Part shown: one piece after another, positions 1-2,243 of the stretch
Numbering within the stretch: the first letter of the stretch is position 1
Layout of the letters: the number at the start of each line of letters is the position of its first letter
Assembly (NCBI GenBank): GCA_905235335.1
Contig: CAJOKZ010000009.1
Coordinates: 1-46,825 of the forward strand
Reading direction: 5' to 3'
From: an uncultured Succiniclasticum sp.
GTDB taxonomy: Bacteria > Bacillota > Negativicutes > Acidaminococcales > Acidaminococcaceae
DNA: 46,825 nt
Notes under the pieces: model-generated
The model's input: the letters and a program-made list of their open reading frames with translations, nothing else
Databases searched by the model: none
What the model was told of the DNA's origin: nothing
Made by a program: the position numbers and the translations under genes

Positions 1-46
1 TGCGGTTTCATTCCCTTCTGCTCAACATGAGCATTATACACGCAGA

Positions 47-80
47 AAGAAAAGCTGTCAAGTATTTTTGCTTGACAGCT
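47..80 (-). terminator. Terminator of the autotransporter gene
   Basis: Arms AGCTGTCAAG (53-62) and CTTGACAGCT (71-80) pair perfectly over 10 bp around an 8-nt loop. Read on the minus strand, the stem is followed by TTTTCTTTC. It lies 40 bp beyond the adhesin stop codon. Confidence 0.8.
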
Positions 81-119
81 CATTATTATTTATCTTCGGG
101 CAGGAATAATGTCCGTTTC

Positions 120-2243
120 TTATTTTCCTACTTTTGCTTCCAGACGGGCCAAAGCTTCTTTCAGGGCCGCAATTTCAGAGCCCTGGGCATCCAGTTTTTC
201 TTTCATTTCCGCATTTTCTGCTTTTATTGATTTGTTTTCTTCCGAAAGATTTGTAATCTGTTTCGCCATGGCCGCCTTGCTGGTTGTAACGCCTTTATCC
301 AGAGCGAAGGATACGCCTGCGTTGATCATGTTCTCACCGTTGCCCATGCTGCCGCCTACGCTGAACATCACCTTGTCAGTAGGACGGTAGAACATGCCCA
401 GAGCCATAGCGTTGGCGTTCCGGTAATTACCGAAGCCCGCCGCCAGGCTGAACTTGTTATCCGTATCCAGGGGATGCAGGGCTGCCAAAGCCGCTGCCCC
501 AGCGCCTACCTTGTTGATCTTGCTGTCCAGGTTGCTGATACGGTGGTTCACCTGGGTCAGGTCCGCGCCGCCGCCACCGGCTTCGATCATTTCTTTTACC
601 TGTTTTACTGTGGTGGCATCGGTATCGTCCGTGCCGGGAGCCACGTTCTTGATCTGCCGTTCCTTACCTTTCGCACCTACAGAAACTGCGTTGTCCACGC
701 CTTCCGAGCCGTCGCCCAAAACTACAGCGTTCTTGGCGCCGGTACTTATATTATTGCCCAGCACGAAGGTATTATCGCCGGAAACGGTGTTGTTATTACC
801 AAAGGCATAACTGTTACTGCCGCTTACTGCGCCGGGGTCACCAAAAGCGCCGCTGTTCTTGCCGGACACTTTTAACCCTGTACCAATAGCGATGCTGTTG
901 GCAGTAGACACAGTGGAACCTTTACCGATTGCGATACCGTTTGTCGCGTCTTTTTCCACAATACCGCCCAAAGCCGCCAGTGAATTTTCCGCAAGAGCCT
1001 GGGAAGAATCACCGAATGCAGTGGAATACTTACCGCTGGCGACAGACTTGTTGCCCCAGGCTGTAGCGCCTTCGCCACTGGCTGTTGTTCCTATACCAAA
1101 CGCCGTAGACGCTTTGCCGTCGGCCTTTCCGCCATTCTTGTAATCCGTTGGAGAATTATAATAACCACCCCAGGCCGTAGCGCCGTTACCGCTGGCTATT
1201 GTTTTAATACCAAACGCCGTGGATTCATGGCCGCTGGCTTCAGACTGATACCCAAATGCAGTGGAATCTTCGCCGCTGGCTGTTGTTCCGGTACCAAACG
1301 CCGTGGAATAGGGGCCCTCAGCTGCTGTACCAAAACCAAACGCCGTGGAACCTTCTTCACTGGCTTTTGCACCCCAGCCAAACGCTGTGGAAGCTTTGCC
1401 TTCGGCCGTCGTATTATAGCCAAACGCCGTGGAACCATAGCCGCTGGCCGTACCGCCTTTAAATTCTTCACCTTCGTCAGTCACCCAACCGCCCCAGGCC
1501 GTAGCGCCATTGCCACCGGCTTCGGACTGATACCCAAATGCCGTGGATTCATCACCGATGGCCTTTGTTTTATTGCCAAACGCAGTGGCACGGAAGCCCT
1601 CAGATTTTACATAGGTACAAGCAAGATTGTATTCATTAATCCCGTCTTTTAGCACTTCGTTTGTATTAACGTCTTTAATCCTATATTTTTTTCCCTCATC
1701 ATAACTCTCGATGAATACCTCTCTATCCAGATCCTCTCTATATCGCATCCGTCCTGCCTGTGTATAAATTCCAAATGCTGTGGAGGCATTGCCTCTGGCA
1801 TTTGTATTATCACCCCAGGCCGTGGAAGCATCGAAGCCTGCAGTTGTTTTCCAGCCCCAAGCCGTGGATTGCTTGCCGTAAGCCGCTGTTATACGACCCC
1901 AGGCCGTGGATTCATCACCGCCGGCCATTGTTTCACTGCCCCAGGCCGTAGAGTTTGTGTAACTGGCCGCTGTTTTCCAGCCCCAGGCCGTAGCATCTAA
2001 ACCGCTGGCTTTTGTACCGGTGCCAAAGGCCGTAGAAGCTTCGCCGCTGGCCGTTGTATTATACCCGAAGGCAGAAGATGCATCTCCAGTGCTATCTTCC
2101 GTAACATCAACGGATGCGTTTGATGCCGTCGCGCCCCACGCTACCGGTTCACAATAACCGCCAACAAGATAGGCGCCTAACACCAGTGAACAAACAATCC
2201 GCGCCGCCAAATACTTTTTCGTTCTTCTCTTTGTCATGGTCAT
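120..2243 (-). CDS. YadA-like trimeric autotransporter adhesin with C-terminal coiled-coil tail
   Basis: A 707-residue surface adhesin of the type Vc secretion family, expected to trimerise in the outer membrane and display its head outside. Residues 1-37 form a long basic signal peptide. Residues 54-523 hold about 29 head repeats of roughly 14 residues ending STAFG, ATAWG or IAIG. Short inserts interrupt them near 165-217, 251-269 and 360-376. A neck follows with the motif RQIKNVAPG (529-537), then a short coiled stalk and a YadA anchor (about 578-650) with four beta-strand stretches. Unusually the protein does not end at the barrel: residues 655-707 are a charged heptad-rich helix. The chosen ATG has an AAGGAGG site 8 nt upstream. 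The gene is monocistronic, with its own promoter and terminator. The family call is firm; the ligand is unknown. Confidence 0.93.
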   Translation of the reverse strand: MTMTKRRTKKYLAARIVCSLVLGAYLVGGYCEPVAWGATASNASVDVTEDSTGDASSAFGYNTTASGEASTAFGTGTKASGLDATAWGWKTAASYTNSTAWGSETMAGGDESTAWGRITAAYGKQSTAWGWKTTAGFDASTAWGDNTNARGNASTAFGIYTQAGRMRYREDLDREVFIESYDEGKKYRIKDVNTNEVLKDGINEYNLACTYVKSEGFRATAFGNKTKAIGDESTAFGYQSEAGGNGATAWGGWVTDEGEEFKGGTASGYGSTAFGYNTTAEGKASTAFGWGAKASEEGSTAFGFGTAAEGPYSTAFGTGTTASGEDSTAFGYQSEASGHESTAFGIKTIASGNGATAWGGYYNSPTDYKNGGKADGKASTAFGIGTTASGEGATAWGNKSVASGKYSTAFGDSSQALAENSLAALGGIVEKDATNGIAIGKGSTVSTANSIAIGTGLKVSGKNSGAFGDPGAVSGSNSYAFGNNNTVSGDNTFVLGNNISTGAKNAVVLGDGSEGVDNAVSVGAKGKERQIKNVAPGTDDTDATTVKQVKEMIEAGGGGADLTQVNHRISNLDSKINKVGAGAAALAALHPLDTDNKFSLAAGFGNYRNANAMALGMFYRPTDKVMFSVGGSMGNGENMINAGVSFALDKGVTTSKAAMAKQITNLSEENKSIKAENAEMKEKLDAQGSEIAALKEALARLEAKVGK

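What the first reader, a model, noticed from the sequence alone, without database searches (positions are those of the whole stretch)
120..512. Trimeric autotransporter with a coiled-coil tail after the membrane anchor
YadA-type proteins normally end with the last beta strand of the barrel. Here the anchor ends near residue 650, and a further helix of about 50 residues with heptad spacing follows. By known topology this tail would be in the periplasm, where it could tether the outer membrane to peptidoglycan or another periplasmic partner. Negativicutes lack the Lpp/Pal-rich linkage of Proteobacteria and use other tethers, so a tail like this could be one.
Basis: partly seen in the sequence, partly recalled or inferred. 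Interest (0 to 1): 0.7.

Follow-up and report, generated by a model that had tools for sequence, protein, structure and literature searches.

The report
Adhesin with periplasmic coiled-coil tail
A surface adhesin of a rumen bacterium carries, after its outer-membrane anchor, a real 51-residue coiled-coil tail that should hang into the periplasm; such tails were already reported for its relatives, their job is unknown, and the evidence here favours holding the three chains together over tethering the membrane to the cell wall.

Summary
The gene (window 120-2243, minus strand) encodes a 707-residue YadA-type trimeric autotransporter. Its anchor (593-647) is followed by a short linker and one unbroken helix (656-706) with perfect heptad spacing. 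It is not an artefact: a cross-species orthologue keeps the tail with 0 amino-acid changes, and all 171 Negativicutes anchors examined have a tail, whereas proteobacterial anchors stop at the last strand.

It is not new. Bechon et al. [quoted passage not shown]

The tether reading is only partly supported. Two paralogues in the same genome share the tail's first residues, then carry the wall-binding SLH domain; those are the likely tethers. SLH tails have near-constant spacing (49 +/- 3 residues). Coil-only tails vary (60 +/- 11), in the window's clade by whole heptads, and have no wall-binding domain. C-terminal lysine is common but does not track L,D-transpeptidase genes.

Best guess: a periplasmic trimeric coiled-coil clamp that brings and holds the three C-termini together during barrel assembly. 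Geometry is well supported; function is inferred.

The parts
120..2243 (-). Trimeric autotransporter gene, 707 aa
2130..2243 (-). Probable signal peptide with N-terminal extension (residues about 1-38)
   Evidence: read from the sequence; boundary is an estimate
714..2096 (-). Passenger head: YadA head repeats (residues about 50-510)
   Evidence: Pfam PF05658, 11 stretches, E 4.5e-46; outer limits approximate
564..656 (-). YadA stalk-like segment, residues 530-560
   Evidence: PF05662 E 7e-6, just under the curated cut-off
483..566 (-). Helix expected to run through the barrel pore, residues 560-587
   Evidence: AlphaFold2 model
303..467 (-). YadA membrane anchor, residues 593-647, four beta strands
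   Evidence: PF03895; strands in the model
279..305 (-). Linker after the last strand, residues 647-655, ending in a nearly invariant Ser (S655) at the helix start; first part of the segment shared with SLH-tailed paralogues
126..278 (-). Periplasmic coiled-coil tail, residues 656-706, about seven heptads (core I/L/M/V with two Asn and one Gln)
52..81 (-). Terminator-like hairpin after the stop codon

Best explanation
The tail is a trimeric parallel coiled coil on the periplasmic side of the 12-stranded YadA barrel. Each chain contributes four strands, ends in the periplasm and, after a short linker capped by a conserved Ser, forms a helix of about 51 residues (about 7.6 nm). I propose that it acts as a trimerization clamp: autotransporter chains reach the periplasm as monomers, and the C-terminal coil pairs three chains in register for barrel insertion and keeps the three C-termini together afterwards. 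It is the same scaffold that, in paralogues, carries an SLH wall-binding domain; only those paralogues are likely to tether the outer membrane. Shown here: helix, heptads, conservation, shared juxtamembrane segment, heptad-stepped length. Inferred: trimeric state, periplasmic location (from topology), clamp function.
For: Unbroken heptads: 40 of 44 coil-only tails with recognizable proximal and distal motifs have a spacing of 1 modulo 7 (15, 22, 29, 36, 43 or 50 residues); the other four differ by 3 or 4, the stutter that coiled coils tolerate. In the window's own clade 19 of 20 helix lengths are 39, 46, 53 or 60. Core positions: a = I/L/N/V, d = L/Q/M/I. The trimer-specifying motif R-h-x-x-h-E (PMC3653964) occurs in 32 of 76 nonredundant coil-only tails against 1.8 expected with the hydrophobic pattern kept, mostly near the C-terminus; OmpM of the same genome, whose V. 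parvula relative has a triple coiled coil (PMC10628300), has it before its barrel. SLH-tailed paralogues share the juxtamembrane segment: the window tail scores 24.4 bits against a profile made from SLH tails only. Prior work: trimerization is thought to occur in the periplasm (PMC7247746), and the trimeric coiled-coil lipoprotein SadB assists SadA there (PMC3953254), a helper in trans for what the tail could do in cis.
Against: The window protein itself has Ala in place of the motif's Arg (ALARLE). Asn at core a positions also fits dimers. No trimer model could be run. Proteobacterial relatives assemble without a tail, so it cannot be essential for barrel folding in general. No experiment known to me deletes such a tail.
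Confidence: 0.55

Rival explanations
1. Non-covalent tether or spacer: the coil spans to the cell wall or to a periplasmic partner and links it to the outer membrane.
For: Topology puts it in the periplasm; paralogues with the same first residues carry SLH; the genome lacks OmpA/Pal domains.
Against: No SLH or other wall-binding domain, and no remnant of SLH in about 880 bases behind the stop of 117 coil-only genes. SLH tails keep a near-fixed barrel-to-SLH spacing (49 +/- 3.1, n 51), coil-only tails do not (60 +/- 11.3, n 117; Brown-Forsythe P 3e-8, within the window's family P 4e-6, not corrected for shared ancestry). OmpM is present as tether.
Confidence: 0.2
2. Lpp-like covalent tether: the C-terminal lysine of the coil is joined to peptidoglycan by L,D-transpeptidases, as in Braun's lipoprotein.
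For: 44 of 75 nonredundant coil-only tails end in Lys against 12% Lys in the tails; the window's genome has four YkuD-family matches.
Against: Terminal Lys is not significantly linked to YkuD genes: 18 of 27 tails end in Lys in genomes that have them, 25 of 46 in genomes without a match (P 0.33). SLH tails also end in Lys more often than composition predicts, and Lys is a common helix C-cap.
Confidence: 0.07
3. Passive leftover: coil-only tails are SLH tails that lost the SLH domain and are now neutral.
For: Shared juxtamembrane segment; at least 17 changes between the two tail types on a weak 54-column tree.
Against: Heptad register and length steps are preserved; 0 non-synonymous against 4 synonymous codon differences in the tail of a near orthologue; no SLH debris downstream; every one of 119 non-SLH anchors kept a tail.
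Confidence: 0.1
4. Artefact: misplaced anchor boundary (the helix is the stalk) or assembly error.
For: The gene sits at a contig end, and such adhesins often break assemblies.
Against: Anchor is complete and four-stranded before the helix; a tail follows in all 171 nonredundant anchors and in an orthologue from another assembly.
Confidence: 0.01

Closest known systems
Veillonella parvula trimeric autotransporters VtaA-VtaI (Bechon et al. 2020, PMC7549365)
   Same: YadA head, stalk and anchor followed by an extra C-terminal coiled coil (or SLH domain)
   Different: Different genus and passenger; the passages read give no register, length or motif analysis of the coil
SLH-tailed trimeric autotransporters of the same genome (L002, L003) and of V. 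parvula (Poppleton et al. 2017, PMC5491611)
   Same: Same anchor and same first residues after it ([ST][KR]xAMAxEIxxL)
   Different: Short coil at near-fixed spacing, then an SLH domain that can bind peptidoglycan
OmpM (PMC10628300; own copy in L146)
   Same: Periplasmic coiled coil (triple in V. parvula OmpM) joined to an outer-membrane barrel, with an R-h-x-x-h-E motif in the copy of this genome
   Different: Coil lies before a porin barrel and carries an N-terminal SLH domain; established tether
CbpF of Fusobacterium nucleatum (PDB 9gh4, PMC12012533)
   Same: Trimeric autotransporter whose chain runs on past the anchor into a heptad-like segment
   Different: Fusobacterial; the tail is not described in the passages read
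SadB, helper lipoprotein of SadA (PMC3953254)
   Same: Periplasmic trimeric coiled coil thought to aid trimerization of an autotransporter
   Different: Separate protein acting in trans, inner-membrane anchored

Membership tests
YadA-type trimeric autotransporter (type Vc) | YadA anchor domain PF03895 | tested here: met
   E 2e-14, over cut-off
YadA-type trimeric autotransporter (type Vc) | YadA head repeats in the passenger | tested here: met
   PF05658, 11 stretches, E 4.5e-46
YadA-type trimeric autotransporter (type Vc) | Four strands per chain, one pore helix | tested here: met
   single-chain model
YadA-type trimeric autotransporter (type Vc) | Homotrimer in the outer membrane | not testable with these tools
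   single-chain prediction only
Negativicutes trimeric autotransporter with extra C-terminal coil (PMC7549365) | Coiled coil after the anchor, chain ends there | tested here: met
SLH-tailed autotransporter / SLH tether | SLH domain (PF00395) after the anchor | tested here: not met
   no SLH in the window protein; genome SLH hits lie elsewhere
Lpp-like covalent tether | C-terminal Lys linked to peptidoglycan by L,D-transpeptidase | tested here: inconclusive
   terminal Lys and YkuD genes present, but the two do not co-vary across genomes
Trimeric coiled coil | R-h-x-x-h-E trimerization motif (frequent, not obligatory in trimers) | tested here: not met
   window has A in place of R; motif enriched in relatives
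Trimeric coiled coil | Parallel three-stranded state | not testable with these tools
   no multimer prediction available

The most novel reading that the evidence does not exclude
The coil-only tails are an SLH-independent tether of the Lpp type: a trimeric periplasmic coil whose terminal lysines are cross-linked to peptidoglycan in species with L,D-transpeptidases, so that adhesins themselves staple the outer membrane to the wall.
Probability: 0.06. Interest if true: 0.75.

Novelty: new member of a known kind. Interest (0 to 1): 0.33.

Why it matters
The tail appears to be the rule in Negativicutes adhesins and its function was stated as unknown in 2020. The contrast found here (near-fixed spacing when an SLH domain follows, free length in heptad steps when it does not) separates a tether from a clamp and gives a direct deletion test. 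If the clamp view is right, these bacteria build into the adhesin what enterobacteria do with the helper SadB.

Tried and rejected
1. Assembly artefact or misplaced anchor: rejected. 2. SLH domain lost by a recent stop: searched all three frames behind 117 coil-only stops with an SLH profile, none found. 3. Lpp-like covalent tether through terminal Lys: Lys enrichment found, but no link with YkuD genes. 4. A sharply conserved end motif as a docking site: the last residues vary (KVGK, LAEK, MGMA, LINK); only the heptad pattern and a basic end are widely shared. 5. Length steps of raw total tail length in mixed clusters were not cleanly heptadic, because linkers and ends differ; the register shows when measured between the two motifs. 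That measure is not fully independent: the distal pattern looks for hydrophobic positions, so it tests continuity of the heptad phase more than length alone. The clade measure does not have that weakness. 7. Paper searches on C-terminal extensions found nothing beyond the two cited.

Full report
What is there. The first 2.2 kb of the window hold one gene on the minus strand (120-2243, 707 aa). It is a YadA-type trimeric autotransporter: YadA head repeats, a stalk-like segment, a complete YadA anchor at 593-647, then 60 more residues. The window is one whole contig (C9) of a 116-contig genome.

The tail is real. AlphaFold2 with 59 aligned sequences gives pore helix, four strands, a nine-residue low-confidence linker and one helix 656-706 at high confidence. 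Hydrophobic residues repeat at exactly 3.5 (P about 1e-4). An orthologue at 97% identity in another species keeps the 61-codon tail with 4 synonymous and no amino-acid changes, and the DNA beyond the stop is unrelated. A terminator-like hairpin follows the stop.

It is general in the class and already published. 140 of 300 Negativicutes genomes have a YadA anchor. I read the C-termini of 171 nonredundant anchors, chosen from the higher-scoring hits plus the window's genus and family, so not a random sample: none ends at the barrel, 119 have a coil or other non-SLH tail and 52 were scored as SLH, of which one (L095) has an unusual Pro-rich tail and was left out of the length statistics. Two proteobacterial anchors read as controls stop right after the last strand, as do the YadA and Hia chains in the PDB, while fusobacterial CbpF continues. 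Poppleton 2017 (PMC5491611) described SLH after the anchor, and Bechon 2020 (PMC7549365) described 'SLH or coiled-coil' after the anchor for all Veillonella trimeric autotransporters, extended it to other Negativicutes, Synergistetes and Fusobacteria, and wrote that the coil's function is unknown.

What the comparison adds. (1) Register: between a proximal S[KR]xx[ML] motif and a distal hxxhE motif, 40 of 44 tails have spacing 1 modulo 7, and the four exceptions differ by 3 or 4; in the window's clade 19 of 20 helix lengths are 39, 46, 53 or 60. Relatedness inflates such counts, but several separate whole-heptad length changes are needed to produce them. (2) Homology with SLH tails: a profile of the first 26 residues of SLH tails scores the window tail at 24.4 bits and finds 29 of 117 coil-only tails at 10 bits or more, against 0.1 per set of pattern-preserving shuffles. 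In the window's genome three anchors are coil-only and two carry SLH. (3) Spacing: barrel to SLH is 49 +/- 3.1 residues, coil-only tails 60 +/- 11.3. (4) The R-h-x-x-h-E trimer motif is enriched about 18-fold over pattern-preserving shuffles in coil-only tails, though the window protein has Ala for Arg.

How it probably works. Four strands per chain starting from the periplasmic side put the C-terminus in the periplasm (established topology of type Vc anchors; my own knowledge). Trimerization of these proteins is thought to occur in the periplasm (PMC7247746), and the trimeric helper SadB assists one of them in enterobacteria (PMC3953254). A C-terminal trimeric coil would bring three barrel segments together and hold them in register. 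That matches a part whose register is kept while its length drifts by whole heptads. A tether should keep its reach, as SLH tails do. These steps from geometry to function are inference.

Tether readings. The genome has OmpM (L146: SLH, coil with RVAALE, then the start of a barrel at the contig end), no OmpA/Pal domain, and two SLH-tailed adhesins. The coil-only tail has no wall-binding domain. A covalent Lpp-like link through the terminal Lys was considered because 59% of nonredundant coil-only tails end in Lys and the genome has four YkuD matches, but Lys endings are not significantly rarer in genomes without YkuD.

Limits. No trimer prediction was possible; statistics are not corrected for phylogeny; the anchor tree has 54 columns and is poorly resolved; the sample leans to high-scoring anchors; SLH assignment used a sequence pattern.

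Noticed in passing
window 33-61, minus strand: A perfect 12-of-12 sigma-70 promoter match (TTGACA, 17, TATAAT) overlaps the terminator-like hairpin behind the adhesin gene and points out of the contig, as if terminator and next promoter were fused.
   Followed up: no
window 1596-1757, minus strand (residues about 163-216): The head repeats are interrupted by about 54 residues (around KKYRIKDVNTNEVLKDGINEYNLACTYV) that match no Pfam family in the whole-protein scan.
   Followed up: no
L042, L109, L090, L015 and 17 other tails: A second juxtamembrane type: a strongly conserved non-heptad segment (about PERYKGGPISSVYVMQDE) lies between the barrel and the coil in 21 tails, mostly from other families. 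Its role is unexplained.
   Followed up: partly
genome sample, groups f28, f31 and genus g12: Groups of Negativicutes with many autotransporters show no YkuD L,D-transpeptidase match, while most other families have one or more.
   Followed up: partly
L095: One anchor is followed by a 201-residue Pro/Ala/Val-rich tail that is neither coil nor typical SLH tail.
   Followed up: no
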